A stretch of DNA of 64,000 bases from Vicinamibacterales bacterium. GTDB taxonomy: Bacteria > Acidobacteriota > Vicinamibacteria > Vicinamibacterales > 2-12-FULL-66-21. The translations under genes and the position numbers were made by a program. Positions within the stretch are counted from its first letter, which is position 1. The number at the start of each line of letters is the position of its first letter. Under the pieces are notes generated by a model. The model had not been told where the DNA came from, made no database searches, and was given only the letters and a program-made list of their open reading frames with translations. The stretch lies in contig DASSPH010000016.1 in NCBI GenBank assembly GCA_035699745.1, forward strand, positions 1 through 64,000, written 5' to 3'. Shown here in pieces: positions 1,982 to 54,809 of the stretch.

Positions 1982-1987
1982 TAATCT
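1982..1987 (+). promoter_or_regulatory. -10-like hexamer TAATCT (leaderless start)
   Basis: TAATCT ends 9 nt before ATG 1997 with no Shine-Dalgarno between. This is the spacing expected if transcription starts at or next to the start codon. Confidence 0.45.
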
Positions 1988-1996
1988 GTGGCGCTC

Positions 1997-3424
1997 ATGC
2001 CGCCCACGACGCGCGCCCCCGCCGCCGGCACCTGGCGGAGGCGTCTCGCGCTCGGCCTCGAAATCCTCATCGTCGTCTACGCCGCGGCGCTGCTCCTCTT
2101 TCTGGCGGGTGTCGAGGACCTCGGCTTCGCGACGATCAGCCGCGGCGAGAAGCCGCTGCTGATCCTGCTGATCGCGATTCCCTTGCGAGTCACGCTGGGG
2201 GGATCGTCCTGGCTGCTGGAGCGCGGCCGCGGGATGCTCCGCGACCCTGCCGCGCTGCGCGCCGCCACCATCGATCGGGTGCCGCCGGCCGTCCTCGACC
2301 CGCTGTTCGCGCTGGCCGTCATCCGCGTCGGATCGATCTTCGTCGGTTTCGTCGCCAACGTGGTGTTCCCCCCGTGGCGGCTGCGCGCCATCGAGATGCC
2401 CTTCCGCCAGTCGAAGTTCTTCGAGATCTTCGCCGCGTGGGACTCGGGCTGGTACTTCGACATCGCGAGGCGCGGCTACTACTGGAACGCCGACGGGCAG
2501 AGCAGCATCGCCTTCTTCCCGCTGTATCCGATGCTGATCCGCGCCGGCGCGTGGCCCTTCGGGGGGAGCGACCATGCGCTGTGGATCAGCGCGATCAGCA
2601 TCTCGGCGATCGCCTACTTCCTCGCCCTCGTGGCGCTGCACCGCCTCACCGAGCGCTGGTCCGGCGATCGCGAGGTCGCCCGGCGCACCGTTCTCTACCT
2701 CTCCATCTTTCCCTTTGCGCTGTTCTTCACGCGCGTCTACGCCGAGTCGATCTTTCTGCTGACGAGCGTCATGGCGGTGAGCCGGGCGTGGGACGGCCGC
2801 TGGTGGCGCGCCGGCGCGTGGGGCGCGCTGGCGACGCTCGCCCGGCCGAACGGCATTCTGATCGCCGTCCCGCTGGTCCTGCTCGCGCTGCGCGATCGTC
2901 CGGGCGTGCCGGCGCTGGCGCGCCGATCCGTTCCCCTCGCGCTCCTGCCCGCCGCGCTCGGCGGATTCTGCCTGTTCGCGTACTCGCTCTCCGGCGATCC
3001 GCTCGCCTGGCTCCACGCGCAGTCGCAGTGGGGATACACGCTCGGGCATCCGCCGTGGCAGCTGCTGCTGTCGCTGCTCGGACGCATCCTCAAGCACGGC
3101 GCCTACGATTACTTCTTCCTGTCGCCGATGGCGCCGTTCCGGCTGTTCCACGGCGTCGCCGCGCTGCTCTTCCTGGCGCTCACGCCGGCGGTGTTCAAGC
3201 GGCTGGGGCCGGCGATGGGCGCGTACGTGCTCGTGAGCCTGCTCGTGCCGCTCAGCGGCAATGCGCTCGAGGGAGTCGGACGCTATGCGGCGGTGCTCTT
3301 TCCGGTGTTCATGATGCTCGGCGGACTGCACTCGCAGCGGCTGCACGAGGCGCTGTTGATCGTCGCGGCGCTGCTGCGCTCGCTGTTCGTGATTCTATTC
3401 GTGACCCTTCGACCGATCTATTGA
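1997..3424 (+). CDS. PIG-V-like membrane mannosyltransferase
   Basis: A polytopic membrane protein of 475 residues with about 10 hydrophobic segments. After the second membrane segments it carries the motif AAWDSGWYFDIARRGYY, with an Asp of the type that serves as catalytic base in GT-C glycosyltransferases of the PIG-V/GPI mannosyltransferase II family (GT76-like). Such enzymes use polyprenyl-phosphate mannose to glycosylate lipid or protein acceptors on the outer face of the cytoplasmic membrane. The acceptor here is unknown. An in-frame GTG exists at 1988, but ATG 1997 is preferred because TAATCT lies 9 nt before it. The 3' end overlaps the convergent alpha-galactosidase gene by 30 bp, which is unusual and leaves no terminator between them. 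Confidence 0.75.
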   Translation: MPPTTRAPAAGTWRRRLALGLEILIVVYAAALLLFLAGVEDLGFATISRGEKPLLILLIAIPLRVTLGGSSWLLERGRGMLRDPAALRAATIDRVPPAVLDPLFALAVIRVGSIFVGFVANVVFPPWRLRAIEMPFRQSKFFEIFAAWDSGWYFDIARRGYYWNADGQSSIAFFPLYPMLIRAGAWPFGGSDHALWISAISISAIAYFLALVALHRLTERWSGDREVARRTVLYLSIFPFALFFTRVYAESIFLLTSVMAVSRAWDGRWWRAGAWGALATLARPNGILIAVPLVLLALRDRPGVPALARRSVPLALLPAALGGFCLFAYSLSGDPLAWLHAQSQWGYTLGHPPWQLLLSLLGRILKHGAYDYFFLSPMAPFRLFHGVAALLFLALTPAVFKRLGPAMGAYVLVSLLVPLSGNALEGVGRYAAVLFPVFMMLGGLHSQRLHEALLIVAALLRSLFVILFVTLRPIY

Positions 3425-5587
3425 TCGTGCCGCCGCCGGCGGACGATCGGGACGAAGCACGAGCACGTGGCCGGCCGACTCGGCCGACTCTTCGATGGTG
3501 ATGCCGTCGCGCATCAGGTCGCCGCCCCGGGCGGATCCGAGAACCAGACCGTTGGCCCGGCTGATCGTGTAGATCGCCTCGGCAGTGAGGCCGCGCGGCT
3601 GGACCGCCACCGCGGGAATCGCGCGGTCCTGTTGAAACGCGAAGAGCACCGCCTCCCCGGTCGACGCCGACAGTTCCTCGAGGACGTCCCACGCCGGACC
3701 GCCCTCCGGCTCGGCCTGCGCGCTGAGCAGGATCGCGCTCGCCTCGCGCTGGATGTCGCGGATCGACTTGTAGATGCCGATCTCACGCGCCATATCGAAC
3801 TGATCGCCCTCGCTGAGCTCCGCCGCGCGATACGTCAGGCCGAGGATGCCGGGCATCCGGCTGCGCAGGTACAACCCGAGATCGGGCGCCCCCGACAGCG
3901 GCTCTCCCGCGTGGCTGATCGCGAACGAGAGCAGGTACGCCGGCGGAAAGAACGTCGTCAATCCGTGGAGGTTGTGCCGGACGTGGACCGACGGGCCGGT
4001 GCGATCGTCCATCCACCCGACGTCGCTGTAGCGCAGCAGCCCGAAATCGGCGCGATTCCCGCCCTGCGAGCAGTTCTCGATGAGCAGGTTGGGATATCGA
4101 TCGCGCAGCGCCGCCAGCACTTCGTAGAGCCCCTTCACGTGCCAGAAGTTGCCGTCGCTCGCCGCGTGGCCGTGACCGCTCCGCGTGCAATTCACCCAGG
4201 AGTTGTTGTCCCACTTCAGATAGTCGGCGTTCGACTGATCGATCAGCTCCGAGACGCGTTCGAACACCCACTCGCGGGCCGCGGCGCTGGCGAGGCAGAT
4301 CTGCGGGTTCCTCGACGAGCCGGGGTTGCCGTTGTTGGTGGCGAGCCAGGACTGCTGCGCCAGGCCGGGTCGTCCGACGGTGCTCTGATCGACGCGCTCG
4401 GGCTCGACCCAGATGCCGAAGCGGAGTCCCAGGTCGTGGGCGTAGTCGCTCAGCGGGCGCAGCCCCTCCGGAAACTTCACCGGATCGACGCGCCACGTTC
4501 CCAGACCGGCATCGAAATCACTGCCTCGTCCGGCGCCGGCATACCATCCGGCGTCCACGACGAAGAGCTCGACGCCGTTGGCCGCCGCGTTCGCCATCTC
4601 CTCGCGCATCGAGTCCTCGTCTATCTCGGTGCCGTAGGCGAACCAGGTATTGCTCGTCACCAGCGGCTGGAACGGACGTCCGCCGCGCACGCCCTGCATG
4701 ACGAAGCCGCGCAACGCCGTGCCGACGTCACTGCGATCGCCCGGCGTGAATCCAAAAAAGCCGTGCGGCGTCTCCAGGGGCCGTCCGCCGTCCACCGCGA
4801 CCGTGACGTTAGGCAGGGTGGCCGAGAACCGCGTCACGCCTGCACCGACTGCCTGCGCCTGGATCTGCCACGACCCGGACCAGGCCAGCCCGCCGAAGAA
4901 CTCCTCCTCGCGGAGGTCGGCGGCAATCATCGGCAGGTATTGCTCCGTCGACCGATTCCGTTCAATCAGCGTGAGCGGCGACACCGAGTCGACGCGCTGC
5001 GTCCTCAGCGAAAACGCGTCCTCGACGGGCGCCCCCGCGGCGTCGCCGCGCAGGCCGTGGCTGTAGTGCACCAGCGTCGCCGGGACCGTGATCTCCCAGA
5101 TCTTCATGTTCCCGATGGTCACGGACGACGAGCCGGTGGCGCGGTACGTTGTCCAGGCTTCGATGGTCGGCGACGGCTCGTAGCAGGCGAACGTACGTTC
5201 CGCGATGACCGGAGCCCGCGTCGAGCGGAAGGTGAAAACCAGGCGGCTCGCGGTGTCGCTGGCCTGGTGGTCGACCCCCTCGAGAATCCAGCCGGCGGCG
5301 CTTGCCCCAAGCGCGGCGGTCGTTCCGTTCACCGTGGCGCCGCTGGTCGCCGTCTCGCCGACGGTCAGCGTCGCGCCTGTTTGAGGATTGACGATGCCGC
5401 TGACGAGCAGCCCGTCGGCCGACAGGCGGAGCGTGGCCTGGATGCGGCTGTTGCCAATGGTCCAGGTTTCTTCGGTCGAGACGCGATCGTGGGAGGACAC
5501 CGCCGCGATGACGAGCGCGGCCAGCAGCCCGATGGTTGAGCGCGCGCGGGATCGGGTTGCATCGTTGACAGACGGCACAGCCGCCAT
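3395..5587 (-). CDS. Secreted GH36-family alpha-galactosidase
   Basis: 730 residues with an N-terminal signal peptide (hydrophobic residues about 19-30), an N-terminal beta-sandwich and a TIM barrel. Diagnostic motifs appear in order: FVVDAGWY, FGIWVEPERV, DYLKWDNNSW (nucleophile Asp near residue 459), ENCSQGGNRADFG and SDVGWMDDR (acid/base Asp near residue 524). These identify GH36/GH27 clan D alpha-galactosidases, which remove terminal alpha-galactose from oligosaccharides such as raffinose or galactomannan. Export suggests action in the periplasm or outside. A TATACT hexamer ends 1 nt before ATG 5587 and 10 nt before an in-frame GTG at 5578, so the true start may be 5578. It is divergent from the gene at 5605. 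Confidence 0.9.
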   Translation of the reverse strand: MAAVPSVNDATRSRARSTIGLLAALVIAAVSSHDRVSTEETWTIGNSRIQATLRLSADGLLVSGIVNPQTGATLTVGETATSGATVNGTTAALGASAAGWILEGVDHQASDTASRLVFTFRSTRAPVIAERTFACYEPSPTIEAWTTYRATGSSSVTIGNMKIWEITVPATLVHYSHGLRGDAAGAPVEDAFSLRTQRVDSVSPLTLIERNRSTEQYLPMIAADLREEEFFGGLAWSGSWQIQAQAVGAGVTRFSATLPNVTVAVDGGRPLETPHGFFGFTPGDRSDVGTALRGFVMQGVRGGRPFQPLVTSNTWFAYGTEIDEDSMREEMANAAANGVELFVVDAGWYAGAGRGSDFDAGLGTWRVDPVKFPEGLRPLSDYAHDLGLRFGIWVEPERVDQSTVGRPGLAQQSWLATNNGNPGSSRNPQICLASAAAREWVFERVSELIDQSNADYLKWDNNSWVNCTRSGHGHAASDGNFWHVKGLYEVLAALRDRYPNLLIENCSQGGNRADFGLLRYSDVGWMDDRTGPSVHVRHNLHGLTTFFPPAYLLSFAISHAGEPLSGAPDLGLYLRSRMPGILGLTYRAAELSEGDQFDMAREIGIYKSIRDIQREASAILLSAQAEPEGGPAWDVLEELSASTGEAVLFAFQQDRAIPAVAVQPRGLTAEAIYTISRANGLVLGSARGGDLMRDGITIEESAESAGHVLVLRPDRPPAAARSIDRSKGHE

Positions 5588-5604
5588 CAGTATAGCGGCC
5601 AGCC

Positions 5605-6252
5605 ATGAGAACTCGACAGGCCGGTGTCTGGTTGCTGGCGGCGATATTGACGAGTTTCGCGCAGGCTGTCGAGGCGCAGACGCCGATCAGCGAGAGTGCC
5701 TACGTCACGGGAGGCACGTTCGTGGACGTGAAGCGATTCTCCGGCGACCCGACGGAGAGCAGGCTCGACGGCACCGCCACCGGCGCCACCGTCGCCGTCG
5801 GGACGTCGATTGGCTCCCGGTGGGACCTGCAGCTTGGGCTGGACGTGACCGGATTCAGCCGCACGCAGCGTCCGCGCAACGTCACGTTTCAGCGCGAAAC
5901 GATCACGCTGACGTCGGTCGCGGAGAATCAGGTGCTGTCGGTGGCGACGCTGCTGCGTTTCCGCTCGGCGGCCCACGGGCGCCTCCGCCTCGGCTACCTC
6001 GGCGGACTCAGTTTCGTGCGGCTCCACCGCCGGTTCCATACCGATGCGCCTGACGGCACGCCCGCAGGGTTGATCCCGCGCCCCGACGAACGCGTCGACT
6101 ACAGCGCCGCCCCGACCGTCGGCATCGACGCGCGCATCGCGGTGACGGAGCACCTGTCCGTGATTCCCGGCATTCACGCCTGCGTCTTCCGCTTCGCCGA
6201 CGAGAGCGGGCTTCTGGTTCGGCCCCGCGTCGGGATCAGGTGGGCGTTCTGA
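5605..6252 (+). CDS. Outer-membrane beta-barrel protein, unknown role
   Basis: 215 residues. A signal peptide (cleavage after VEAQ, about residue 25) is followed by alternating hydrophobic/polar strands, many aromatic and glycine residues, and a terminal aromatic residue in RWAF*, the C-terminal signature of barrels inserted by BamA. It resembles small opacity/OmpW-size barrels but I recognise no specific family. It starts 17 bp from the divergent alpha-galactosidase. TATAGC lies 8 nt before the ATG as a weak -10. The amidohydrolase gene follows 10 bp downstream and is probably co-transcribed. Confidence 0.7.
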   Translation: MRTRQAGVWLLAAILTSFAQAVEAQTPISESAYVTGGTFVDVKRFSGDPTESRLDGTATGATVAVGTSIGSRWDLQLGLDVTGFSRTQRPRNVTFQRETITLTSVAENQVLSVATLLRFRSAAHGRLRLGYLGGLSFVRLHRRFHTDAPDGTPAGLIPRPDERVDYSAAPTVGIDARIAVTEHLSVIPGIHACVFRFADESGLLVRPRVGIRWAF

Positions 6253-6262
6253 AGCATTTCCC

Positions 6263-7609: not shown

Positions 7610-7780
7610 GCGGCGGCCGAGAGCCCGAGTCCGCGTCGGGCGGCATTCTGTGCTGACGGATTGTGCCGTCCGAGTTCGACAGGAAAGGTACTTCGGGTGA
7701 CAAAACCGTGATCGCGCGCCGGCGGGAAACGCCGCGAACAACGGGCATTCGCGCGATCGACCGCGGTACACCGCTTGCCA
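7610..7780. other. Intergenic region upstream of the bactofilin operon
   Basis: 171 bp without a gene. A short GC hairpin (GCCCGA at 7623-7628 with TCGGGC at 7636-7641) has no T-run, so it is at best a weak terminator for the amidohydrolase transcript. TACACC ending 8 nt before ATG 7781 is a poor -10 candidate. Confidence 0.4.
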
Positions 7781-10747: not shown

Positions 10748-11320
10748 TCAGAAGCGGATCAGGAGCCCGATCGACGGGCCGATCGCCTCGATGTCCGGGT
10801 TGCGTGAAGAGCCCTTGATGCCGTTGTTCGAGATGTGGACCAGCTGCAGCGCGGACACGAGATGGACGCGCGGATGGACGCGGACCATCGCGCCGCCGCC
10901 GCCGATCGCGACGTAGTTGAACCGCGTGCCGCGCGGCGGCGTGGCCAGCGCGGTGTGAGAGACCCCGAGATCCCCCTGCAGAAACGCGGACCATCGTCCG
11001 CGCGTCACGAGGCGCGCCCGCACGCCGATGGTCAGGCCGAGGACGACGGCGTCCTGCGATCGCTGCGAGACGTAAATGAAGCGCTGCTGCATGCGCAGGG
11101 CGAGCCCGTCGCGCAGCCCGTAGACCACTCCCTGATCGAGGCCGTACAGCTCTTCGTGCGAGATGTTGTAGTTCCACGCTTCGAGCGCGGCGATCGCCGC
11201 GGTCTCGAAATGCCACGCGCCGCGGGCGAAGGGATCGAGCGAAGCGGGCTCGGGCCCCTGCGCCCCGACACGCGCGGCGCAGGCGAGCAGCAGCAGGGCG
11301 TGGAGTATCGTAAGCCGAAT
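10748..11320 (-). CDS. PagL-like lipid A 3-O-deacylase (outer-membrane barrel)
   Basis: About 190 residues. A hydrophobic signal (LHALLLLACAARVGAQ) is followed by a small beta-barrel ending in an aromatic residue (LLIRF*). Near the C-terminus the sequence LVHISNNGIK...NPDIEAIG carries His-x-Ser-Asn and a downstream Glu, matching the PagL catalytic His/Ser/Glu arrangement. PagL removes the 3-O acyl chain of lipid A at the outer membrane. No ATG, GTG or TTG starts the signal peptide: the frame is open far upstream, but upstream codons overlap the divergent gene at 11319. ATT 11320 is given provisionally; CTG 11296, 7 nt after a GATACT hexamer, is an alternative. Confidence 0.65.
   Translation of the reverse strand: MRLTILHALLLLACAARVGAQGPEPASLDPFARGAWHFETAAIAALEAWNYNISHEELYGLDQGVVYGLRDGLALRMQQRFIYVSQRSQDAVVLGLTIGVRARLVTRGRWSAFLQGDLGVSHTALATPPRGTRFNYVAIGGGGAMVRVHPRVHLVSALQLVHISNNGIKGSSRNPDIEAIGPSIGLLIRF
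11304..11312. promoter_or_regulatory. Shared divergent -10 core AGTATCGTA
   Basis: On the plus strand TATCGT (11306-11311) ends 7 nt before ATG 11319. On the minus strand the same bases read TACGAT/GATACT and point into the PagL-like gene. This is one of several tight divergent junctions with a bidirectional AT core. Confidence 0.4.
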
Positions 11321-18605: not shown

Positions 18606-18611
18606 AGGATA
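18606..18611 (-). promoter_or_regulatory. -10-like hexamer TATCCT (leaderless start of pepF)
   Basis: On the minus strand TATCCT is followed by exactly 6 nt and then ATG 18599. No Shine-Dalgarno is visible. Confidence 0.45.
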
Positions 18612-21032: not shown

Positions 21033-21040
21033 AGTATACG
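21033..21040. promoter_or_regulatory. Shared divergent -10 core AGTATACG
   Basis: On the minus strand TATACT (21038 to 21033) ends 6 nt before ATG 21026. On the plus strand the same bases give TATACG just before GTG 21043, with GGAG at 21031-21034 as a possible ribosome binding site for the plus gene. The two start codons are only 16 bp apart. Confidence 0.45.
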
Positions 21041-24199: not shown

Positions 24200-24997
24200 A
24201 TGAACATCACCGAATGGCTCAACTTGATCTTCCGCTGGATCCACGTCGTCGCCGCGATTCTGTGGGTCGGCTCGACCTTCTACTTCACCTGGCTCGACGG
24301 CCGGATGCGGCGGCTCGAGGCGGGGCAGGAGCGATCCGGCGTCTGGATGGTGCACAGCGGCGGGTTCTACACCGTCGTCAAGCAGACGTCGCTGGGTGTC
24401 GCGCCGGATCAGGTGCACTGGTTCCGCTGGGAGGCGATGGTCACGTTCCTCAGCGGCTTCGCGCTGATGACCGTCGTCTACTATCACGGCGGGCTGATGG
24501 TCGATCCGATCGAGCCGGCGGTGTCGCCGGTGGTGGCCTCGGCGATCGGCGTCGGCACGCTGTTCTTCGGCTGGCCGGTGTATGACCTGCTGGCGCGTTC
24601 GCCGCTGGCGAAGCACACCGCGGTGTTCGGGGCGATCGGATTGGCCGTCATCGTCGCGATCGCCGCCGGGCTGTCGGCGGTGCTCAGCACGCGCGCGACC
24701 TACATCCACATCGGGGGGTTGTTCGGGGTCATCATGGTGAACAACGTGTGGATGCGCATCCTGCCGCCGCAGCGGCGGATGATCGCCGCCGGCGTCCGCG
24801 GCGAGCCGTTCGATCCGGCGGCCGCGGCCGGGGCGAAGCGCCGTTCGATGCACAACACGTTTCTCGCGATCCCGACCGTGCTGGTGATGATCAGCAACCA
24901 CTATCCGACGGCGACGTATGGGAATCGCTACGCGATTCCGATTCTCGCCGCGCTGATCCTCGTCGGCTGGGCCGCCGCGGCCTGGCTGCGCCGCTGA
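24200..24997 (+). CDS. puuD: Membrane urate oxidase PuuD, short form
   Basis: 265 residues with about seven to eight membrane helices. The start ITEWLNLIFRWIHVVAAILW carries the conserved His of the haem-type membrane, and GSTFYFTWLD, PDQVHWFRWEAM, YIHIGGLFGVIMVNNVWMRILPPQ and ISNHYP are hallmark PuuD blocks. PuuD oxidises urate to 5-hydroxyisourate and passes electrons to the respiratory chain. The well-known form has a C-terminal cytochrome c domain. Here the protein ends after the last membrane helix (AAAWLRR), so a separate electron acceptor is needed. The TGA stop is contributed by the inverted-repeat element at 24989-25083. Confidence 0.9.
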   Translation: MNITEWLNLIFRWIHVVAAILWVGSTFYFTWLDGRMRRLEAGQERSGVWMVHSGGFYTVVKQTSLGVAPDQVHWFRWEAMVTFLSGFALMTVVYYHGGLMVDPIEPAVSPVVASAIGVGTLFFGWPVYDLLARSPLAKHTAVFGAIGLAVIVAIAAGLSAVLSTRATYIHIGGLFGVIMVNNVWMRILPPQRRMIAAGVRGEPFDPAAAAGAKRRSMHNTFLAIPTVLVMISNHYPTATYGNRYAIPILAALILVGWAAAAWLRR

Positions 24998-26295: not shown

Positions 26296-26301
26296 AACGT
26301 A
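26296..26301 (-). promoter_or_regulatory. -10-like hexamer TACGTT
   Basis: On the minus strand TACGTT is followed by 6 nt and then GTG 26289, which favours this start over the two in-frame codons upstream. Confidence 0.35.
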
Positions 26302-26336: not shown

Positions 26337-26342
26337 TAGAAT
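26337..26342 (+). promoter_or_regulatory. -10 hexamer TAGAAT (leaderless start of XDH operon)
   Basis: TAGAAT matches TATAAT at 5 of 6 positions and ends 7 nt before GTG 26350. No Shine-Dalgarno lies between. The palindrome at 26313-26328 would overlap the -35 region. Confidence 0.5.
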
Positions 26343-30548: not shown

Positions 30549-30554
30549 TATAAT
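30549..30554 (+). promoter_or_regulatory. Consensus -10 TATAAT (near-leaderless start)
   Basis: A perfect TATAAT ends 10 nt before TTG 30565. The predicted transcription start lies about 4 nt before that codon. No convincing -35 at 16-18 bp. Confidence 0.5.
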
Positions 30555-34186: not shown

Positions 34187-34192
34187 TAAGAT
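34187..34192 (+). promoter_or_regulatory. -10-like hexamer TAAGAT before a possible ATT start
   Basis: TAAGAT ends 6 nt before ATT 34199, which opens the conserved N-terminus of the MATE transporter. The spacing is identical to several ATG/GTG leaderless starts in the window. Confidence 0.4.
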
Positions 34193-34198
34193 CGCAGG

Positions 34199-35584
34199 AT
34201 TCAGAACGCCAAGCGATTCGATCGGTCGATCGTCGAAGGTCCCATCTCGCGCGCCGTGTGGCGGCTGGCGTGGCCCACGGTGATCCAGAACATGATCGGC
34301 GGTCTCCAGGGGATCGTCGATCACGTCATGGTCGGTCACTACGTCGGGTTCACCGGCAACGCCGCGATCGGCGTCGGGTGGCAGATCTTCCTCGTCGTGG
34401 TGGTGTTCATCTCGTCGCTGTTCACCGGCATGGGGGTGCTCGTCGCGCGCTTCGCCGGCGCGAACGACCACGACAAGGTGAACCGGGTCGTCTACCAGGC
34501 GTTCCTCACCGCCGTGGTGCTCGCGCTCGGCGTGCTCGCGCCCATCGGGTACGTGCTGTCGCCGTCGCTGCTGGAGCTGGTGCACGCGTCGCCCGAGGTC
34601 CGCGCCGGGGCGCTGCCCTATCTGCGGACGATGTTCGTGTGCAGCATCGGGCAGCTGCTGTACTTCATGATCGCCGGCGCGCTGCGCGCCGCCGGGGATC
34701 CGCGCACCGGGCTGCGCATCGGCATGTGGATCGTCGGGCTGAACGTCGGGCTCAACATGATTCTGATCCGCGGTCTCGGACCGATCCCGGGATTCGGCGC
34801 GCAGGGGGCGGCGCTGGGGACGTCGATCGCCTCGGCGGTCGCGTCCGGCTACGCGCTGTGGCTGATGGCGAGCGGCCGCGTGGTGGTCAGCCTGCGGGGC
34901 GTGCCGCGCGCGCCCGACTGGCAGATCATCCGGTCGTTGTTCAAGTTCGGGCTCCCGGCCGGGGTGCAGGGGGTGGCGATGAACGTCGCCGGGGTGCTGC
35001 TGCTGCGCTTCATGGGGTCGCTCGAGCACAGCGCCGAAGTGCAGGCGGCGTTTGCGGTGTGCTACACCGAGCTGTTCGCGTTCATCACGTGGACGTCGGT
35101 CGGATTGATGAGCGCGGCGGCGACGATCGCGGGGCAGAACCTCGGGGCGGGTCACCCGCATCGCAGCGTCGAAGGGGTGCAGGTCGCGGCGCGATTCGGG
35201 CTGGCGATCGCCGGAACCATCGGGTTGATCTTCCTGGTCGGCGCCGATCACCTGCTCGCCGCCTTCGGTCTCAGCGATCCGACCGTCGTCCGGATCGGCC
35301 GCGAGCTGCTTCGCTACTTGAGCGTCTCCGGACTCTTCATCACCGTCGCGCTGACCTACACCGGCGGCCTGCAGGGGACCGGCGATACGCGGAGCCCGCT
35401 GTTCATCACCTTGATCGCGCAGGTCGTCGTGCCGCTGGGGTTGTGCTTCTATCTCCAGGCCACCGGCCAGCTGCAGGCCTCGTGGATCTGGCTGGCCATC
35501 CTGCTCGGCCATTTCACCCGCTGCGTGCTCTCCACCGCGCGTTTTCACCAGGGCCGGTGGAAGACCATCGCCGTGGGGGTGTGA
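34199..35584 (+). CDS. MATE-family multidrug/toxin efflux transporter
   Basis: A 12-TM transporter with two MatE halves (WRLAWPTVIQNMIGGLQGIVD, VMVGHYVG, and in the second half FGLPAGVQGVAMNVAGVLLL and GQNLGAGHP). MATE proteins exchange cationic drugs or metabolites for H+ or Na+ across the inner membrane. The usual start codon would be GTG 34256. However, the upstream in-frame residues KRFDRSIVEGPISRAVWRLAW match the family N-terminus, and the only codon that could start them is ATT 34199, 6 nt after TAAGAT. Either ATT is used, or the base is an error for ATG. From ATT the protein is 461 residues. Confidence 0.85.
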   Translation: MQNAKRFDRSIVEGPISRAVWRLAWPTVIQNMIGGLQGIVDHVMVGHYVGFTGNAAIGVGWQIFLVVVVFISSLFTGMGVLVARFAGANDHDKVNRVVYQAFLTAVVLALGVLAPIGYVLSPSLLELVHASPEVRAGALPYLRTMFVCSIGQLLYFMIAGALRAAGDPRTGLRIGMWIVGLNVGLNMILIRGLGPIPGFGAQGAALGTSIASAVASGYALWLMASGRVVVSLRGVPRAPDWQIIRSLFKFGLPAGVQGVAMNVAGVLLLRFMGSLEHSAEVQAAFAVCYTELFAFITWTSVGLMSAAATIAGQNLGAGHPHRSVEGVQVAARFGLAIAGTIGLIFLVGADHLLAAFGLSDPTVVRIGRELLRYLSVSGLFITVALTYTGGLQGTGDTRSPLFITLIAQVVVPLGLCFYLQATGQLQASWIWLAILLGHFTRCVLSTARFHQGRWKTIAVGV

Positions 35585-37149: not shown

Positions 37150-37155
37150 TATCCT
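37150..37155 (+). promoter_or_regulatory. -10-like hexamer TATCCT upstream of msrB
   Basis: TATCCT ends 9 nt before ATG 37165. A GGGAGA lies in the gap, so a very short leader with a ribosome binding site is also possible. Confidence 0.35.
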
Positions 37156-38309: not shown

Positions 38310-38316
38310 TAGAATA
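38310..38316. promoter_or_regulatory. Bidirectional -10 core TAGAATA
   Basis: On the plus strand TAGAAT (38310-38315) ends 9 nt before ATG 38325. On the minus strand TATTCT (38316 to 38311) ends 8 nt before ATG 38302. Only 22 bp separate the two start codons, so RNA polymerase can serve only one direction at a time. Confidence 0.5.
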
Positions 38317-38324: not shown

Positions 38325-39365
38325 ATGGGATTGATGGACTTCATCAAAGGCGAGCTGATCGACGTCATCGAATGGACGGACGACTCGCGCGACACGCTCT
38401 CGTTCCGCTTTCCGGACGATGACAAGGCGATCAAGAACGGCGCCCAGCTGATCGTCCGCGAGTCGCAGCAGGTGCAGTTCGTCTACCTCGGCGAGTTCGG
38501 CGACACCTTCGGACCCGGCAAGCACACGCTCACCACCGACAACATCCCGGTCCTCACCAGGCTGAAGTCGTGGAAGTACGGCTTCAACTCGCCGTTCAAG
38601 GCGGATGTCTACTATCTCAACACCCGCCTCTTCACCGGCAACAAGTGGGGGACCTCCAACCCGGTGATGATGCGCGACGAGGATCTCGGCATCGTCCGCG
38701 TGCGCGCCTTCGGGACGTTCGACTTCCGGATCGTCGACGCCAGGCGGTTTCTCAAGGACGTCGCCGGATCGGACCAGAACTTCCGCCTCGACGAGTTCGC
38801 CGACACCATGCGCTCCCGGATCGTGAGCGTGTTCGCCGACGCGCTGGCGACGGCGAAGATTCCGGTGTTCGACGTGGCGAGCCGCTACACCGAGCTGGGC
38901 GAGGCGCTGCTGCCGCTGATCAATCCGGTCATCCAGGCCAAGTACGGCATCGAGATGCCGAGCTTCATCGTCGAGAACGTGTCGGTGCCGCCGGAGGTGG
39001 AGCAGGCGGTCGACAAGCGCTCCAGCATGGCGGCGGTCGGCAATCTGAACGACTACGTGAAGTTTCAGATGGCCCAGGGCATGGAGAAGGGCGGCAGCGC
39101 GGGCGGCGCGGCGACCGAGATGGCGGTCGGCCTGGCGATGGCGCAACAGATGATCCAGCAGGGGCTCACGGCTCCGACGGCCGCGAAGTCTGCCGCGGGC
39201 GCCGGAACGGTGGACCTGCTCTCCACCGCCGAAGCGGCGCAGCTGCTCGGCGTGAGCGAGACGGACGTCCAGCACGTCCTCGAATCCGGCGAGCTGGTGG
39301 GCAAGAAGATCGGATCGACCTGGCGGATCAAACGGTCCGCGATCGACGACTACCTTGCAAAGTAA
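38325..39365 (+). CDS. SPFH protein (YdjI-like) with C-terminal excisionase-type HTH
   Basis: 346 residues. Residues 1 to about 240 are an SPFH/band 7 protein of the YdjI 'virion core' type (GLMDFIKGELIDVIEWTDDS, IVRESQQVQFVYLG, GNKWGTSNPVMMRDEDLGIV, VSVPPEVEQAVDKRSSMAAV). After a Gly/Ala-rich linker, residues 298-346 (LLSTAEAAQLLGVSETDVQ, VLESGELVGKKIGSTWRIKR) form an excisionase/MerR-type winged HTH. In Bacillus subtilis YdjI works with YdjG and YdjH in membrane recruitment of PspA. The following gene encodes a YdjG-like protein. An SPFH scaffold fused to this HTH is unusual; the HTH may bind protein or DNA. Confidence 0.85.
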   Translation: MGLMDFIKGELIDVIEWTDDSRDTLSFRFPDDDKAIKNGAQLIVRESQQVQFVYLGEFGDTFGPGKHTLTTDNIPVLTRLKSWKYGFNSPFKADVYYLNTRLFTGNKWGTSNPVMMRDEDLGIVRVRAFGTFDFRIVDARRFLKDVAGSDQNFRLDEFADTMRSRIVSVFADALATAKIPVFDVASRYTELGEALLPLINPVIQAKYGIEMPSFIVENVSVPPEVEQAVDKRSSMAAVGNLNDYVKFQMAQGMEKGGSAGGAATEMAVGLAMAQQMIQQGLTAPTAAKSAAGAGTVDLLSTAEAAQLLGVSETDVQHVLESGELVGKKIGSTWRIKRSAIDDYLAK

Positions 39366-48644: not shown

Positions 48645-48654
48645 ACATTATCCT
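48645..48654. promoter_or_regulatory. Bidirectional -10 core ACATTATCCT
   Basis: On the plus strand TATCCT (48649-48654) ends 6 nt before ATG 48661. On the minus strand TAATGT (48650 to 48645) ends 6 nt, and GATAAT (48652 to 48647) ends 8 nt, before ATG 48638. The start codons are 22 bp apart. Confidence 0.5.
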
Positions 48655-48981: not shown

Positions 48982-48987
48982 GGCCGG

Positions 48988-49878
48988 ATGCGCGAACTGT
49001 CCTGGCGAGCGCGTCTGCTCCGCGCGGCTCTGCGCCGGGTGCCCCGCGGGCGGTACCGCCTCCTCGACCTGCTGGCGCCCTCGCGCGGCCGGGTGATCGC
49101 GAGGCTCGCCGGCGATCTCGGCGGCGCAAGGTTCGAGGCGGACCTCGGCGACGCGCTGTCGCGCGAAGTGTGCTTCACCGGCATCTACGAGCCGCCGATC
49201 GCGCGTGTGTTCCAGCGCCACGTCCCCCGCGGCGGCACGGTGGTCGACGCCGGAGCGAATTGGGGCTACTTCACGCTGATTGCGGCCGCCGCCGCGGGTG
49301 GCGCCGGCCGGGTCATCGCGCTCGAGCCGGACCCGCGCCACTTCGCAGCGCTCGAGCGCAACCTGTCGCTGAACGGCTTTACGCAGGTCCGCGCGATGCG
49401 CGCTGCCGCCGCGTCAGGCGACGGGACGCTGATGTTTGCCGGCTACGACGACGGGGAGGCGAATCGCGGCGTCTCGCGGCTGGTGCCCAGGGCGGACGCC
49501 GCGGCGGCCAATCAGTTCGCAGTCCGGGCGACGACCGTCGATGCCGTGACCGGGACGGCTTCCACGGTGGATCTCGTGAAGATCGACGTCGAAGGGGCGG
49601 AAGATCTGGTGCTGCAGGGAATGCAGGCGGGGCTCGCATCCCGCCGCTACCGCGCCGTGCTCCTGGAACTGCATCCGTCTCTGCTCCGCGAGCGCGGCGT
49701 CGATCCGGAATCCTGCCTGCGGCGCCTGCAGCAAGCCGGATACCGCGGCTGGTCGATCGATCCGTCTCCGGCGGCCTATCGCGCGGCGATCGATCCCGCC
49801 GTGCCGGTCGAATCGCTGCTGCGGCCGCTCGACGACTGGCGGCGGTCGCCGTGGCCGCATTTGCTGTGGCTCTGTTAG
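48988..49878 (+). CDS. FkbM-family methyltransferase
   Basis: 296 residues. The SAM-binding motif is GTVVDAGANWGYFTLIAAAA with GRVIALEPDPRHFAALERNL. The family signature appears in TVDLVKIDVEGAEDLVLQGM and AVLLELHPSLL. FkbM-type enzymes O-methylate polyketides, sugars or lipopolysaccharide residues. With glycosyltransferase genes downstream (50624) and the exopolysaccharide operon at 57 kb, a saccharide substrate is likely but not shown. No signal peptide. Confidence 0.9.
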   Translation: MRELSWRARLLRAALRRVPRGRYRLLDLLAPSRGRVIARLAGDLGGARFEADLGDALSREVCFTGIYEPPIARVFQRHVPRGGTVVDAGANWGYFTLIAAAAAGGAGRVIALEPDPRHFAALERNLSLNGFTQVRAMRAAAASGDGTLMFAGYDDGEANRGVSRLVPRADAAAANQFAVRATTVDAVTGTASTVDLVKIDVEGAEDLVLQGMQAGLASRRYRAVLLELHPSLLRERGVDPESCLRRLQQAGYRGWSIDPSPAAYRAAIDPAVPVESLLRPLDDWRRSPWPHLLWLC

Positions 49879-49881
49879 AGT
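49876..49881 (+). promoter_or_regulatory. -10-like hexamer TAGAGT
   Basis: TAGAGT overlaps the FkbM stop and ends 9 nt before GTG 49891. Confidence 0.35.
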
Positions 49882-49890
49882 ACGAGGCGC

Positions 49891-50646
49891 GTGCTTCCCC
49901 GATCGATTCTCCCGCCGTCCTACGAGCAGGTCCACGGCCAGGCCCGGCGCATCGAGCTGGCGTCGGATCGCCGGATCCGCGAGCGAAACAAGATCAGCTA
50001 CCGCCTGAATCACTGGCCGATCTGGATCTTCGTCTTCTTCATCGCGCCCGGGCCGATGACCTTCACGCTGTTCGAGCACGGCTTCAACGCCCGCATGGCG
50101 GCGTGGATGGGCACCGTGCTCCTCGGCACCGGCATCGCCGGTCTGTTCGGGAAGCTGCCCGGCGTCGAGCCGCGGCCGTACATCATCCGGTTCACGGAGG
50201 ATCGGCCGAATCCGCTGTACCGCCGCATCTGTTACACGCTGGCGTGGAGCGAGGCGGTCACCTTCGCGGTGCTCAACATCGCCGGGCTCGCCGTCGCGGT
50301 GGCGACGGGTGAGTGGCGCCTCCGCCAGATGTACGAAGCGGCGTACTTCCCGATCGCCGGCACGATCTGGCTGCTCGGCGCCCTGGGACTGCTGCCGCGC
50401 GTGAAGCGCTCGACGAAAGGCGAAGGACACGAGCGGCGCTATTTCTATGGATCCGTCTGGGCGGTGTGTATTGCGCAGCCGGTGCTGTGGCTGATGTGGA
50501 AGGTGCTGCCGCGGTCGCAGCCGTCCGACGCGATCAAGCTGGCGATCTTCCTCGCGATCCTCATCTGGGTGGGAAATCTCGCGCGCCGCGGGCTGCTCCC
50601 GCGGACGCGTCCGATCGTGCCGGGTGAACTCGCCGTTTCCGACTGA
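49891..50646 (+). CDS. Conserved membrane protein, unknown function
   Basis: 251 residues from GTG 49891 with six or seven membrane helices (WPIWIFVFFIAPGPMTFTLF, AWMGTVLLGTGIAGLFG, ITFAVLNIAGLAVAV-type segment, PIAGTIWLLGALGLLPR, VWAVCIAQPVLWLMWKV, AIFLAILIWVGNLA). Between helices lie charged loops (RPYIIRFTEDRPNPLYRRI). I do not recognise a named family. The neighbours make a role in envelope or polysaccharide synthesis possible. Its end overlaps the start of the glycosyltransferase at 50624 by 23 bp. Confidence 0.6.
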   Translation: MLPRSILPPSYEQVHGQARRIELASDRRIRERNKISYRLNHWPIWIFVFFIAPGPMTFTLFEHGFNARMAAWMGTVLLGTGIAGLFGKLPGVEPRPYIIRFTEDRPNPLYRRICYTLAWSEAVTFAVLNIAGLAVAVATGEWRLRQMYEAAYFPIAGTIWLLGALGLLPRVKRSTKGEGHERRYFYGSVWAVCIAQPVLWLMWKVLPRSQPSDAIKLAIFLAILIWVGNLARRGLLPRTRPIVPGELAVSD

Positions 50647-51865
50647 CGCAGGGGACGAGCCGGAGGGAGCGGGCGCGACGCCTCCGCCCCGCGCGCCAGG
50701 AGTGCCGCCGCGCGCAGCGTTCGTCAACGGCGGCATCCTCGGGCTGCTCTCGTACGCCAACTGGCTGCGGCGCGCCTTTCCCGACGATCGCGAGATTCAC
50801 GCCGAACACTTCGTGCTCACCGAGGATCTGACGCCAGCCGAGCGCGTCGTCCGCCGCGCGCTCTGCGCCCGGCTGTGGCCGGACGCTCTGGGGCCGCGGA
50901 ACCTCGATCTCGCGCGCTATCGACAGGAGATGCACTCCGGGCTGCAGGCGCGCCGGCGGCTGCTCGCCCGCGGGCTGGAGCATTTCGACGTGCTCCACTT
51001 TCATCGCCAGGCGACCGCGTACGCGGCGCTCGACCTGATGCGCCGCGTGCCCTCGATTGTATCGATGGACTGCACGCAGACATGCGTGCTGCAGGACGCG
51101 CGGTCCGCAGCCGAACGGTGGTCGCTCGGATTCAACGCGCGCCGCGACGGCCGGATCTTCCGCCGCGCCGCCGCGATCGTGTCGACGTCGCGGTGGGCCG
51201 AGCGGGACCTGCGGCAGATGTATCCGGACTGCCGGACGCCGATCCACGTCATGCCGAATCCCGTACCGCTCGACCTGTTCGAGGCCTCGTGGCTCGACGA
51301 GCGGCGCGCCCGGGCGCGGCTGCGGCCGCAGTGCCTGTTCATGGGGGGCGATTTCCCACGGAAGGGAGGCTACGACTTGTTGGCGGCCTGGGAGGCGGGC
51401 GGGTTCGCCCAGCGTGCCGATCTCACGCTCGTCACGGAATGGCGCCTCGGCCCGCTGCCCGCCGGCGTGCGGCAGGTGCGCGGCGTCCGCGGGCACACGC
51501 CGGCCTGGATTCGCACCTGGCGCGAGGCCGACCTGTTCGTCATGCCGACGCGCAGCGAGGCCTTCGGCCTCGTGTACCAGGAGGCCGCCGCGGCCGGTCT
51601 GCCGGCGATTGGCTCGGATCTCAATGCCGTGCCCGAGATCATCACCGACGGCCACACCGGACTGCTCGTCGCGCCGGGCGATCGCGCCGCCCTCGCCCGA
51701 GCGCTCGACACGCTGATCGGTTCGGCCGAGCTGCGGGATCGGCTGGGCCGGAACGCGCGTCGAAAGATCGAGGAAGACGCTCACCCCGACCAACACCGCC
51801 GCCAGCTGGTGGCGCTCCTGACCCGGGTGGCATCGATCCGGCAAGGACCGGATTCTCATGGCTGA
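50624..51865 (+). CDS. GT4-type glycosyltransferase
   Basis: 413 residues from GTG 50624. A GT-B fold: FVNGGILGLLSYANWL in the acceptor domain, FDVLHFHRQATAYAALDLM, IHVMPNPVPLDLFE, and the donor-binding motif MPTRSEAFGLVYQEAAAAGL (E-x7-E) followed by DLNAVPEIITDGHTGLLV. Retaining GT4 enzymes add a sugar from a nucleotide donor to a lipid-linked or soluble acceptor in the cytoplasm. The first 30 residues are a Pro/Ala-rich extension. It overlaps upstream and downstream genes (23 bp and 8 bp). Confidence 0.88.
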   Translation: MNSPFPTDAGDEPEGAGATPPPRAPGVPPRAAFVNGGILGLLSYANWLRRAFPDDREIHAEHFVLTEDLTPAERVVRRALCARLWPDALGPRNLDLARYRQEMHSGLQARRRLLARGLEHFDVLHFHRQATAYAALDLMRRVPSIVSMDCTQTCVLQDARSAAERWSLGFNARRDGRIFRRAAAIVSTSRWAERDLRQMYPDCRTPIHVMPNPVPLDLFEASWLDERRARARLRPQCLFMGGDFPRKGGYDLLAAWEAGGFAQRADLTLVTEWRLGPLPAGVRQVRGVRGHTPAWIRTWREADLFVMPTRSEAFGLVYQEAAAAGLPAIGSDLNAVPEIITDGHTGLLVAPGDRAALARALDTLIGSAELRDRLGRNARRKIEEDAHPDQHRRQLVALLTRVASIRQGPDSHG

Positions 51866-52325
51866 CCTGTCGCTCGACAACAAGGGAGTCGTCGCGCCGT
51901 GCCCGTCCTGCGGCCAGCGCAACCGGCTGGTCTTCGGCCGGCTCACGTCCGAGACCCGCTGCGGTAAGTGTCATGCGCCGCTGGCGGCACCGTCCGCGCC
52001 AATCGAGGCGCCGGACGCCGCCGCCTTCGACGCCGCCATCACCGCGTCGCAATTGCCGGTCGTCGTGGACTTCTGGGCCCCGTGGTGCGGCCCGTGCCGG
52101 ATGGTCGCGCCGGAACTGGCCCGCGTCGCCGCGTCGAACGCCGGGCGCTATCTCGTCGTCAAGGTGAACACCGACGCGATCCCGGAGCTCGGCGAGCGCT
52201 TCGGCATCCGCTCGATTCCGACGATGGCGGTGTTCGACGGGGGGCGGGAACAGGGACGGACCGCCGGGGCGCGTCCGGCGGCCGACATCGAGGCGTTTAT
52301 ACAATCCACGCTCGGTCGTCGATAA
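51858..52325 (+). CDS. trxC: Thioredoxin 2-type (zinc-binding) thioredoxin
   Basis: 155 residues. An N-terminal zinc module with Cys15/18 and Cys35/38 (VAPCPSCGQRNRL, TRCGKCHAPL) precedes a standard thioredoxin domain with the redox motif WAPWCGPCRMVAPEL (Cys77/80) and the cis-Pro in IRSIPTMAVF. This is the Trx2/TrxC class, which reduces protein disulfides, is often induced by oxidative stress and supports methionine sulfoxide reductases. Zn-coordinating N-terminal cysteines may sense oxidants. It overlaps the glycosyltransferase by 8 bp. Confidence 0.93.
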   Translation: MADLSLDNKGVVAPCPSCGQRNRLVFGRLTSETRCGKCHAPLAAPSAPIEAPDAAAFDAAITASQLPVVVDFWAPWCGPCRMVAPELARVAASNAGRYLVVKVNTDAIPELGERFGIRSIPTMAVFDGGREQGRTAGARPAADIEAFIQSTLGRR

Positions 52326-52328
52326 TCT
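52321..52328 (+). promoter_or_regulatory. -10 core GATAATCT (leaderless start of E1 gene)
   Basis: GATAAT (52321-52326) ends 8 nt and TAATCT (52323-52328) ends 6 nt before ATG 52335; the trxC stop TAA is inside the motif. A CTCCTG lies in the gap, which is not a Shine-Dalgarno. Confidence 0.5.
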
Positions 52329-52334
52329 CTCCTG

Positions 52335-54809
52335 ATGGCTGACCCCGTGGCCGTGCAGGCGCGCGCCTCCGTCGCCGCGCGCTTGACGGCGTTCGTCCTC
52401 GAACGCTTTCCGTTCGCCGCGTCGGCGGTTGCCTCCGCGCTCGAGTCGCTGGCCCCCGGCGATGTCGCCGATGCCGCCGCGATCGAGCGCGTGCGCGGCT
52501 TGCTGCCTCAAGCGCTGCGCCGCGTGCTGCCGGCGCCGCCGCACGGGCTGCCCGAGACGACGCCCGCGGTCGCCGCCGCGGCGCGCTGGTCCGCCGCCGT
52601 GGACGAGCTGATCGAAGCGTGCGACGGGTTCCTCCGCCGCGCGGCGCTCGCGTGTTCGCTGACCGCTGAAGAGCGCCGCGAGATGCTCCGCGGCATGGCG
52701 CTGACCCGCGCCACCGACAACCGCCTGAAAGCGTTCTTTGCCGGCGGCGACGTCCGCTACGGCGGCGCCGCGTTCCAGGGGAAGGGCTTCCGGTCGCTGG
52801 GACAGGAGGCGATCTACGCCGCCGGCCTGCGGCTGCGCCGCGGTGACGCGTACCGGTCCGATCGCGGCTGGCAGGGAGACGTGGTCGCGCCGCTGATTCG
52901 CGATCTCGGCGTCGCGCTGGCGATGAAGCCCGACGCATCCACCGTGCGCATGGTGCTGGCCGCGCAGATGGCCAAAGCGGGGCCGCCGATGAACGGCAAG
53001 GATCTGCACATCGGCGATTTCGAGTCCGGCATCCTGCCGGCGTCCGCGCCGCTGGCGATCGGCACGCTGACCGTCGCGGGAATGGCGATGGCGTTCGCGC
53101 AGCAGGGCGACGGACGCGTCGCGCTCTCCTTCATCGGCGAGGGAGGCTCGTCGCTCGGCGAGTGGCACGAGGCCATCAACCTCTGCGCGGCGCGGCGTCT
53201 CCCTGCCGTGTTCTGCGTGCAGAACAACCAGACCGCATTGTCGACGCCGGTGGCGGATCAGTCGGCGGTGCGCGTGTTCGCCGACAAGGCGCAGGGCTAC
53301 GGGATCCCGGGGGTCACGATCGACGGAACCGATCCCGACGAGATTGCCGCGGCGTTCGCCTGGGCCGTGGAGCGGGCGCGCGAAGGCCGGGGACCGTCGC
53401 TGATCGAGCTGGTGTGCATGCGGATGTGCGGCCATGCGCATCATGACGACATGCTGTATCTCGGCAAGGATCCGCAGCCGTCGTGGCAGTATCCGGCGCT
53501 TGGCGAGCAGGGCTACGCGAACCCGCGGCTGTACGCCTACTGGAGCGCGCGCGATCCGATCGCCACGTACGCGGCGCGCCTCGAGTCCGAAGGGGTGATC
53601 GCGTCCGGCGACGTCGATCGCCTGCGCGCCGACGCGGAGGCGCTCGTCGAGGAACAGGCGCGGGCGGTGATCGAGGCGCCGTGGCCCGAGGCGGCGATCG
53701 CCGGCGAGGGCGTGCTGGCGGGTGAACCGCGGCGAACGCGGGTCGAAGTGCTCGATCCCGCCGTCCGCAATGCCGTGGCCGTCGCCCCGGCGCTGCCGCC
53801 GGTGGAAGAAAACGCGCCGCGCGATCCCAGGGGGCGCACGTTCCTCGAGGCGGTGATGCTCGGTGTCGGCGACGCGCTGCGCGCCGATCCGCGCGTCTTC
53901 GTGTACGGCGAGGACGTCGGCGGCAGTTACGGCAACGCCTTCCTGCTGCTGCGGCCGCTGCTCGAGGAGTTCGGATCGCGCATCCTGAATTCCCCGCTCG
54001 CCGAAGGGGCGGTGCTGGGCGTGTGCGTCGGCGCCGCGCTCGCCGGCCAGCGGCCGATCGGCGAGATGCAGTTCAACGACTTCGTCGCCACCGGCTTCAA
54101 TCAACTGGTGAACAACGCGGCGAAGATCCGCTATCGCTGGGGCGGATCGGTGCCGATGGTCGTTCGCATGCCGTGGGGCGGCCTGCGTCATGCCGGTCCG
54201 TATCACAGCCAGAACACCGAGCCATGGTTCTACCGCGTTCCCGGCCTGAAGATCGTCGTGCCGTCCACGCCGGCGGACGCCCGCGCCCTGATGGCCGCGG
54301 CAGTCGCCGATCCTGACCCCGTCCTCTATTACGAGCACATCGCCCTCTATCGCGATCCGCGCGTCAAACAACGGCTCGCGGCCGAGCCGCCCGCCCCGAT
54401 CGCGATCGGCCGCGCCGCGCTGCGCCGCGCCGGCGACGATCTCGCGATCGTGTCCTACGGCGCCTACGTGCACACGGCGCTCGCCATCGCCGAGCGGCTG
54501 GCGGACGACGGCATCGCGGCGTCGGTGCTCGATTTGCGGACGCTGTCGCCGCTCGATCGCGAGACGCTGCTCGCCGTCGCGCGGCACTGCGGCCGCGTGC
54601 TGATCGTTCACGAGGATTCGCGCACCGGCGGCATCGGCGAGAGCGTCGCGGCGATCGTGCAGGAGGAGGCGTTCGAGTGGCTCGACGCTCCGGTGCGGGT
54701 GATCGGCGCGCTCGACACGCCGGTGCCGTACTCGCCGCCGCTCGAGGAGGCGTTCCTGCCCGGCGAGGCGGCGATCGAGCGCGCCGCCCGTCTTCTCGCG
54801 GCCTACTGA
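52335..54809 (+). CDS. Fused E1 alpha/beta 2-oxo acid dehydrogenase
   Basis: 824 residues containing both E1 halves in one chain. Residues about 1-125 are an Ala-rich helical N-terminal extension. The alpha half follows (FQGKGFRSLGQEAIYAAGLR, IGEGGSSLGEWHEAINLCAA with VQNN as the thiamine-diphosphate/Mg site, RMCGHAHHDDMLYL). After about residue 495 comes the beta half (RTFLEAVMLGVGDALRADPR, VYGEDVGGSYGNAFLL, QFNDFVATGFNQLVNNAAKI, VVRMPWGGLRHAGPYHSQNT). The enzyme decarboxylates pyruvate or branched-chain 2-oxo acids within a lipoyl E2 complex. No E2 or E3 gene lies near, so the complex partner is elsewhere. Confidence 0.9.
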   Translation: MADPVAVQARASVAARLTAFVLERFPFAASAVASALESLAPGDVADAAAIERVRGLLPQALRRVLPAPPHGLPETTPAVAAAARWSAAVDELIEACDGFLRRAALACSLTAEERREMLRGMALTRATDNRLKAFFAGGDVRYGGAAFQGKGFRSLGQEAIYAAGLRLRRGDAYRSDRGWQGDVVAPLIRDLGVALAMKPDASTVRMVLAAQMAKAGPPMNGKDLHIGDFESGILPASAPLAIGTLTVAGMAMAFAQQGDGRVALSFIGEGGSSLGEWHEAINLCAARRLPAVFCVQNNQTALSTPVADQSAVRVFADKAQGYGIPGVTIDGTDPDEIAAAFAWAVERAREGRGPSLIELVCMRMCGHAHHDDMLYLGKDPQPSWQYPALGEQGYANPRLYAYWSARDPIATYAARLESEGVIASGDVDRLRADAEALVEEQARAVIEAPWPEAAIAGEGVLAGEPRRTRVEVLDPAVRNAVAVAPALPPVEENAPRDPRGRTFLEAVMLGVGDALRADPRVFVYGEDVGGSYGNAFLLLRPLLEEFGSRILNSPLAEGAVLGVCVGAALAGQRPIGEMQFNDFVATGFNQLVNNAAKIRYRWGGSVPMVVRMPWGGLRHAGPYHSQNTEPWFYRVPGLKIVVPSTPADARALMAAAVADPDPVLYYEHIALYRDPRVKQRLAAEPPAPIAIGRAALRRAGDDLAIVSYGAYVHTALAIAERLADDGIAASVLDLRTLSPLDRETLLAVARHCGRVLIVHEDSRTGGIGESVAAIVQEEAFEWLDAPVRVIGALDTPVPYSPPLEEAFLPGEAAIERAARLLAAY

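What the first reader, a model, noticed from the sequence alone, without database searches (positions are those of the whole stretch)
1982..52335. Widespread leaderless-type starts: TANNNT 6-10 nt before the start codon
Many transcription-unit heads have a -10-like hexamer directly before the start and no Shine-Dalgarno. Examples (gap between hexamer and start): TAATCT/ATG 1997 (9), TATCGT/ATG 11319 (7), TATCCT/ATG 18599 minus (6), TATACT/ATG 21026 minus (6), TACGTT/GTG 26289 minus (6), TAGAAT/GTG 26350 (7), TATAAT/TTG 30565 (10), TAAGAT/ATT 34199 (6), TATCCT/ATG 37165 (9), TATTCT/ATG 38302 minus (8), TAGAAT/ATG 38325 (9), TAATGT/ATG 48638 minus (6), TATCCT/ATG 48661 (6), TAGAGT/GTG 49891 (9), TAATCT/ATG 52335 (6). 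At this GC content a TANNNT in a 5-position window should occur at roughly 2% of starts by chance; I count about half of the unit heads. Transcription would begin at or within a few nt of the start codon. Leaderless genes with this signal are established in Actinobacteria and Deinococcus; how common they are in this organism's phylum I cannot say.
Basis: partly seen in the sequence, partly recalled or inferred. Interest (0 to 1): 0.85.

Follow-up and report, generated by a model that had tools for sequence, protein, structure and literature searches.

The report
Leaderless gene starts in an acidobacterium
In this uncultured soil-type acidobacterium, about one in five transcription-unit heads carries its promoter directly in front of the start codon, so the messenger RNA probably begins at the gene itself; this is real but already predicted for the phylum, and the fresher detail is neighbouring genes that start back to back from one shared promoter core.

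Summary
All 15 hexamer/gap/codon claims are letter-exact, and the signal is genome-wide. In 1.55 Mb of the same genome (1,231 usable starts from my own gene caller), TANNNT at gap 5-10 precedes 12.3% of starts against 2.7% at control distances, 23% of divergent heads and 28% of unambiguous divergent heads. Among 64 XYNNNZ patterns TANNNT is the most enriched (6.2x), and no other A/T-only pattern exceeds 1.9x. Whole genome: TANNNT-N7-ATG 216 against TANNNT-N22-ATG 94. E. coli shows depletion. Orthologs of the SPFH gene keep the same start but alternate between an adjacent -10 without SD and an SD. Best explanation: leaderless mRNAs from -10-only promoters, beside a working SD system. RNA 5' ends were not tested. 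The phylum-level claim is published (Zheng 2011: Acidobacteria 3/3 genomes, mean 13.3%). Less described: 12 of 22 divergent pairs with both signals start 17-28 nt apart over overlapping -10 elements, statistically mixed and without RNA support.

The parts
1982..1987 (+). TAATCT, 9 nt before ATG 1997 (PIG-V type mannosyltransferase, Pfam PF04188)
   Evidence: exact; start 1997 within 0.4 score units of the best-called start 1988; Pfam
11306..11311 (+). TATCGT, 7 nt before ATG 11319 (unknown protein, N-terminus looks like a signal peptide)
   Evidence: unambiguous start, divergent head; no Pfam match
18606..18611 (-). TATCCT, 6 nt before ATG 18599 (-), M3-type peptidase by inspection
   Evidence: unambiguous start, 14 nt behind a same-strand gene
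21033..21038 (-). TATACT, 6 nt before ATG 21026 (-); divergent start GTG 21043 (+) only 16 nt away
26296..26301 (-). TACGTT, 6 nt before GTG 26289 (-)
   Evidence: near-equal alternative start
26337..26342 (+). TAGAAT, 7 nt before GTG 26350 (xanthine-dehydrogenase-like by inspection)
   Evidence: unambiguous start, divergent head
30549..30554 (+). TATAAT, 10 nt before TTG 30565
   Evidence: only near-optimal start of this ORF
34187..34192 (+). TAAGAT, 6 nt before ATT 34199 (MatE transporter); doubtful start
   Evidence: no ATG/GTG/TTG between the in-frame TAA and the conserved FDRSIVEGPI; relatives have a longer N-terminus, so a frameshift is an alternative
37150..37155 (+). TATCCT, 9 nt before ATG 37165 (MsrB-like by inspection)
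   Evidence: unambiguous start
38310..38316 (.). TAGAATA: TAGAAT on + is 9 nt before ATG 38325 (SPFH/Band 7 + HTH_17 protein); TATTCT on - is 8 nt before ATG 38302 (zinc-ribbon protein); fully overlapping -10 pair, starts 22 nt apart
   Evidence: ATG 38325 conserved in orthologs; start 38302 scores 5.8 units below the best-called start of that gene
48645..48654 (.). ACATTATCCT: TAATGT on - is 6 nt before ATG 48638 (GT87); TATCCT on + is 6 nt before ATG 48661; the two -10 elements share TA, starts 22 nt apart
   Evidence: GT87 orthologs carry TANNNT 6-9 nt before shifted starts
49876..49881 (+). TAGAGT, 9 nt before GTG 49891
   Evidence: unambiguous start; 12 nt behind a same-strand gene
52323..52328 (+). 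TAATCT, 6 nt before ATG 52335 (2-oxoacid dehydrogenase E1 fusion by inspection)
   Evidence: 9 nt behind a same-strand gene

Best explanation
These are promoters with a -10 element only (TANNNT, sigma-70/SigA type, no -35 box) placed so that transcription begins at, or up to about 4 nt before, the start codon. The mRNA is leaderless, and translation would start by direct recognition of the 5'-terminal start codon (70S or IF2-assisted route, as established for leaderless mRNAs elsewhere), without Shine-Dalgarno pairing. About 10% of all genes and roughly a fifth of unit heads in this Vicinamibacterales-type acidobacterium use it, beside an ordinary SD system with an intact anti-SD. A subset are divergent pairs whose start codons lie 17-28 nt apart and whose -10 elements overlap, so one stretch of DNA would start both leaderless mRNAs. 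Shown here: position, specificity, evolutionary pattern. Inferred: transcript 5' ends, sigma factor, translation route.
For: Position-locked enrichment with mode gap 6-7 and whole-genome 216 v 94. TANNNT is first of 64 patterns at that position in divergent, tandem-far and tandem-near starts (5.9x, 5.6x, 9.1x); other A/T-only patterns are at most 2.6x. Internal bases TATAAT-like, no -35, as reported for M. tuberculosis (PMC3898074). SD seldom together with TANNNT (9 v 32 expected). SPFH orthologs: fixed start; adjacent -10 without SD v SD with the -10 usually 26-47 nt away or not found (Fisher p 7e-6, phylogeny not corrected). GT87 orthologs: 11 of 28 have TANNNT at gap 6-9 of some in-frame start v 0-5 at other distances. 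nadB: TAGGATA-type element kept in 29 of 30 order members. Controls: E. coli depleted (4.0% v 10.7%), D. radiodurans plasmid MP1 enriched (9.2% v 3.1%). Divergent close starts: 12 of 35 with both hexamers v 1.3 from shuffles. Anti-SD CCTCC intact in the 16S of a same-family genome.
Against: No RNA or protein data. Starts come from a home-made caller on 25% of a fragmented assembly; about half are ambiguous. The SD/TANNNT exclusion is partly geometric overlap. In divergent pairs, having the signal on both sides is not significantly more frequent than independence (22 v 17.7, p=0.09), and the gene-call-free test of shared elements is negative for TANNNTA (2 v 2.9) and borderline for ANNNTANNNT (9 v 5.5, p=0.07; 1-3 at control gaps). 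Some individual window cases will be chance, since the background is 3-7% of heads.
Confidence: 0.88

Rival explanations
1. The hexamers are real promoters, but many of the assumed start codons are wrong: true starts lie tens of nt downstream and the mRNAs have ordinary leaders.
For: About half of the called starts have a near-equal alternative; some window genes too.
Against: The distance peak is tight (gap 6-9) and at least as strong for unambiguous starts (28% divergent, 20% tandem-far). The SPFH start is conserved in all 36 Acidobacteriota orthologs checked (ATG in 35, GTG in 1).
Confidence: 0.07
2. The signal is a non-SD ribosome site or general A/T-rich, unstructured DNA before starts (translation, not transcription).
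For: Non-SD A/T-rich sites are known, e.g. in Bacteroides (PMC9581028).
Against: Only TANNNT is strongly enriched, not other A/T-only patterns; more frequent at divergent unit heads than inside operons (23% v 6%); the SPFH orthologs have the same kind of TANNNT words about 26-47 nt upstream when an SD is present, as a promoter would.
Confidence: 0.03
3. Chance or composition artefact.
For: TANNNT has only three fixed bases.
Against: 4-6 fold over same-region controls, whole-genome 216 v 94, negative in E. coli.
Confidence: 0.01
4. For some divergent pairs the symmetric element is a regulator's operator rather than, or as well as, a shared promoter (for example TGnTAGGATAnCA between aroB and nadB).
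For: The conserved element is itself a dyad and is kept in 29 of 30 order members at variable distance from the start.
Against: Most shared elements have no common sequence beyond TANNNT on both strands; the distance from hexamer to start is what is kept.
Confidence: 0.15

Closest known systems
TA-led (leaderless) genes of Zheng et al. 2011 (PMC3160421)
   Same: TANNNT about 12 bp (first T) before the start, no SD; Acidobacteria 3/3 genomes, mean 13.3% (9.7-19.4%) of genes; here 12.3% raw, about 10% after background
   Different: The three acidobacterial genomes of that paper were not compared here; here also positional controls, ortholog switching and shared divergent elements
Leaderless transcriptome of Mycobacterium tuberculosis (PMC3898074)
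   Same: TANNNT without -35, transcription start at the start codon; juxtaposed divergent promoters are called common and prpD/Rv1129c are both leaderless
   Different: There measured by RNA ends (22-26% of expressed genes); here sequence evidence only, in a different phylum
Bidirectional promoters with symmetric -10 elements (Warman et al.; PMC12825309, PMC10268837)
   Same: Start sites most often 18 bp apart, also 10 and 23 bp, over a shared -10; the close pairs here fit TANNNTA (18 bp) or ANNNTANNNT (23 bp)
   Different: Neither of the two held papers mentions leaderless genes; the 2021 founding paper was not held and could not be checked
GeneMarkS-2 class of bacteria with leaderless transcription (as cited in PMC9581028)
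   Same: 21.6% of bacterial species predicted to use it in up to 40% of transcripts
   Different: GeneMarkS-2 itself was not run here

Membership tests
Leaderless (TA-led) genes | TANNNT -10 element about 6-10 nt before the start codon, above chance | tested here: met
Leaderless (TA-led) genes | No Shine-Dalgarno in the same genes | tested here: met
   9 of 152 TANNNT starts have SD against 32 expected; partly geometric
Leaderless (TA-led) genes | Start codon correct, supported by homology | tested here: inconclusive
   Good for SPFH 38325; GT87 relatives start at shifted codons; not settled for the rest; ATT 34199 doubtful
Leaderless (TA-led) genes | Transcript 5' end at or within about 5 nt of the start codon | not testable with these tools
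   needs 5'-end RNA sequencing
Leaderless (TA-led) genes | Translation of an mRNA without 5' UTR | not testable with these tools
   needs ribosome profiling or reporters
Warman-type bidirectional promoter | -10 elements on opposite strands overlap symmetrically | tested here: met
   12 pairs in the 1.55 Mb sample, including 48638-/48661+; 38302-/38325+ read from the confirmed coordinates
Warman-type bidirectional promoter | Divergent transcription starts 7-25 bp apart from that element | not testable with these tools
   RNA 5' ends needed; start codons are 18-29 bp apart
Warman-type bidirectional promoter | Shared elements with starts on both sides more often than expected | tested here: inconclusive
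   12 of 35 v 1.3 by shuffling, but 22 v 17.7 by independence and a borderline or negative gene-call-free test

The most novel reading that the evidence does not exclude
In this acidobacterial family a recurring architecture is the compact divergent leaderless pair: two genes start 17-28 nt apart, the whole space between them is one symmetric -10 element plus two spacers, and RNA polymerase orientation at that element decides which leaderless mRNA is made, tying the expression of the two genes together without any 5' UTR.
Probability: 0.5. Interest if true: 0.5.

Novelty: new member of a known kind. Interest (0 to 1): 0.4.

Why it matters
It puts an abundant, mostly uncultured soil phylum among bacteria with a mixed SD and leaderless start system, which matters for gene-start annotation (SD-based callers will misplace these starts), for designing expression constructs, and for antibiotics that act differently on leadered and leaderless translation. 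The SPFH orthologs show the same gene switching between the two modes, which makes the evolution of the switch directly testable. If the shared-promoter pairs are real, they are a very compact layout for coupling two genes.

Tried and rejected
16S is missing from this assembly; the anti-SD was read in a same-family genome. General A/T richness was tested and rejected. A -35 box was looked for and not found. CAT-Nk-ATG spacing counts are dominated by codon periodicity and were useless. The built-in 'read backwards' control of the pattern search (209) is not suitable because it changes the codon; I used the N22 control instead. The first gene-calling script failed. One search was a poorly chosen probe with an invented generic peptide and gave nothing. 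Luteitalea (G014; identified by its 7,480,314 bp from memory) has a weaker signal (8.1% v 2.2%) and no close shared pairs among 53 divergent pairs. Warman 2021 is not in the library.
Full report
What the window is. The window is G000:C16:1-64000 of a 6.30 Mb, 110-contig genome at about 69% GC without 16S. Orthologs of the SPFH protein are closest to MAGs titled Acidobacteria 'gp6', Vicinamibacteraceae and Vicinamibacterales, so this is a Vicinamibacterales-type acidobacterium. The window begins inside a 23S gene (1-494) followed by 5S (677-793).

Check of the observation. I tested the 15 listed cases letter by letter: all start codons, hexamers and gaps are exact. I then wrote a gene caller (dicodon model, starts chosen without looking at upstream motifs) and applied it to the window and to a growing sample of the genome. 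In 1.55 Mb, 12.3% of 1,231 starts have TANNNT at gap 5-10 against 2.7% at control distances; divergent heads 23.1% (5.2%), tandem heads at least 40 nt from the upstream gene 11.8% (2.9%), tandem genes closer than that 6.0% (0.9%); unambiguous divergent heads 27.6% (6.1%). The profile peaks at gap 6-9. Without any gene calls, ATG shows an excess of TANNNT at gaps 6-10, and the whole genome has 216 TANNNT-N7-ATG against 94 TANNNT-N22-ATG.

Is it a promoter element? Of all 64 patterns XYNNNZ, TANNNT is the most enriched at gap 6-9 in each class of start (5.6-9.1 fold), while other A/T-only patterns stay near or below 2.6 fold. The inner bases lean to TATAAT and no -35 box is visible, as in M. tuberculosis (PMC3898074). 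E. coli run through the same pipeline shows depletion at that place (4.0% v 10.7%) and strong SD (45%); the D. radiodurans plasmid MP1 shows enrichment (9.2% v 3.1%). SD is used in this genome too (21% v 7.5%), and a same-family genome has the normal 16S tail GGATCACCTCCTT. SD and TANNNT coincide in 9 starts where 32 are expected; part of that follows from the two search zones overlapping.

Evolutionary test. The SPFH gene (window 38325) has the same start position in all 36 distinct Acidobacteriota orthologs (35 ATG, one GTG). Seven have TANNNT 6-9 nt before it and no SD, 27 have SD and no adjacent hexamer, one has both, one neither (Fisher p 7e-6, not corrected for phylogeny). In most SD forms in which a TANNNT is visible it lies about 26-47 nt upstream, as expected for a promoter with a leader. 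GT87 orthologs (window 48638-) keep TANNNT 6-9 nt from start codons that lie at different positions: 11 of 28, against 0-5 at other distances. A glyoxalase-family gene (window 32309) lost the signal here, while three relatives have TATGAT 6-8 nt before the ATG. Between aroB and nadB an element TAGGATA, TACGATA or TAGAATA (once TATCCTA), often inside TGnTANNNTAnCA, is kept in 29 of 30 order members, close to the nadB start in some and further away in others.

Divergent pairs. Several listed cases are back-to-back starts: 48638-/48661+ (22 nt between) and 38302-/38325+ (22 nt); 21026-/21043+ (16 nt) has the signal on one side only. In the 1.55 Mb sample 22 of 171 divergent pairs have the signal on both sides, and 12 of these lie 17-28 nt apart with overlapping hexamers, in the form TANNNTA or ANNNTANNNT. 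These two forms give 18-bp and 23-bp start-site spacing if initiation is 7 bp from the element, the spacings reported as common for bidirectional promoters (PMC12825309). Dinucleotide shuffles of the spacers give 1.3 such pairs where 12 of 35 are seen. Against this, the signal on both sides is not clearly more frequent than independence (22 v 17.7, p=0.09), the gene-call-free test is negative for TANNNTA and borderline for ANNNTANNNT, and 53 Luteitalea pairs show none. With only the single best-called starts, 4 of 10 both-signal pairs are 19-23 nt apart.

Interpretation and novelty. The best reading is leaderless mRNAs from -10-only promoters in about a tenth of all genes, beside an SD system. 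For the phylum this was predicted in 2011 (Acidobacteria 3/3 genomes, 9.7-19.4% of genes; PMC3160421), and divergent leaderless pairs are mentioned for M. tuberculosis. So the main finding is a new member of a known kind. What may be fresh is the recurrent coincidence of both start codons with a shared symmetric -10, and the ortholog-level switching. No RNA evidence exists here, and that is the decisive missing piece.

Noticed in passing
L254-L283 (aroB-nadB intergenic region; G000:C17 about 24971-24990): A symmetric element TGnTAGGATAnCA (two facing extended -10 sequences, or an operator) is kept in 29 of 30 Vicinamibacterales genomes between divergent aroB and nadB; in several it lies 8 nt before the probable nadB start.
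   Followed up: partly
34187-34256: MatE transporter gene without ATG/GTG/TTG between an in-frame TAA and the conserved N-terminal motif; either a rare ATT start at 34199 or a frameshift.
   Followed up: partly
32309: Glyoxalase-family gene whose relatives have TATGAT 6-8 nt before the ATG, while the window copy has lost it.
   Followed up: partly
L131-L193 (Verrucomicrobiota loci): Pooled verrucomicrobial loci show practically no SD excess (5.4% v 4.6%) and a weak TANNNT excess (7.4% v 3.5%).
   Followed up: no
1-793: Contig starts inside a 23S rRNA gene followed by 5S; the assembly lacks 16S.
   Followed up: no
38325-39365: SPFH/Band 7 protein with a C-terminal HTH_17 domain, divergent from a zinc-ribbon protein; close relatives also in Verrucomicrobiota and Betaproteobacteria.
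   Followed up: no
G000:C42:12986-13015 and G000:C44:9929-9953: Two further divergent start pairs with overlapping TANNNT elements, seen in the list of whole-genome pattern matches.
   Followed up: no
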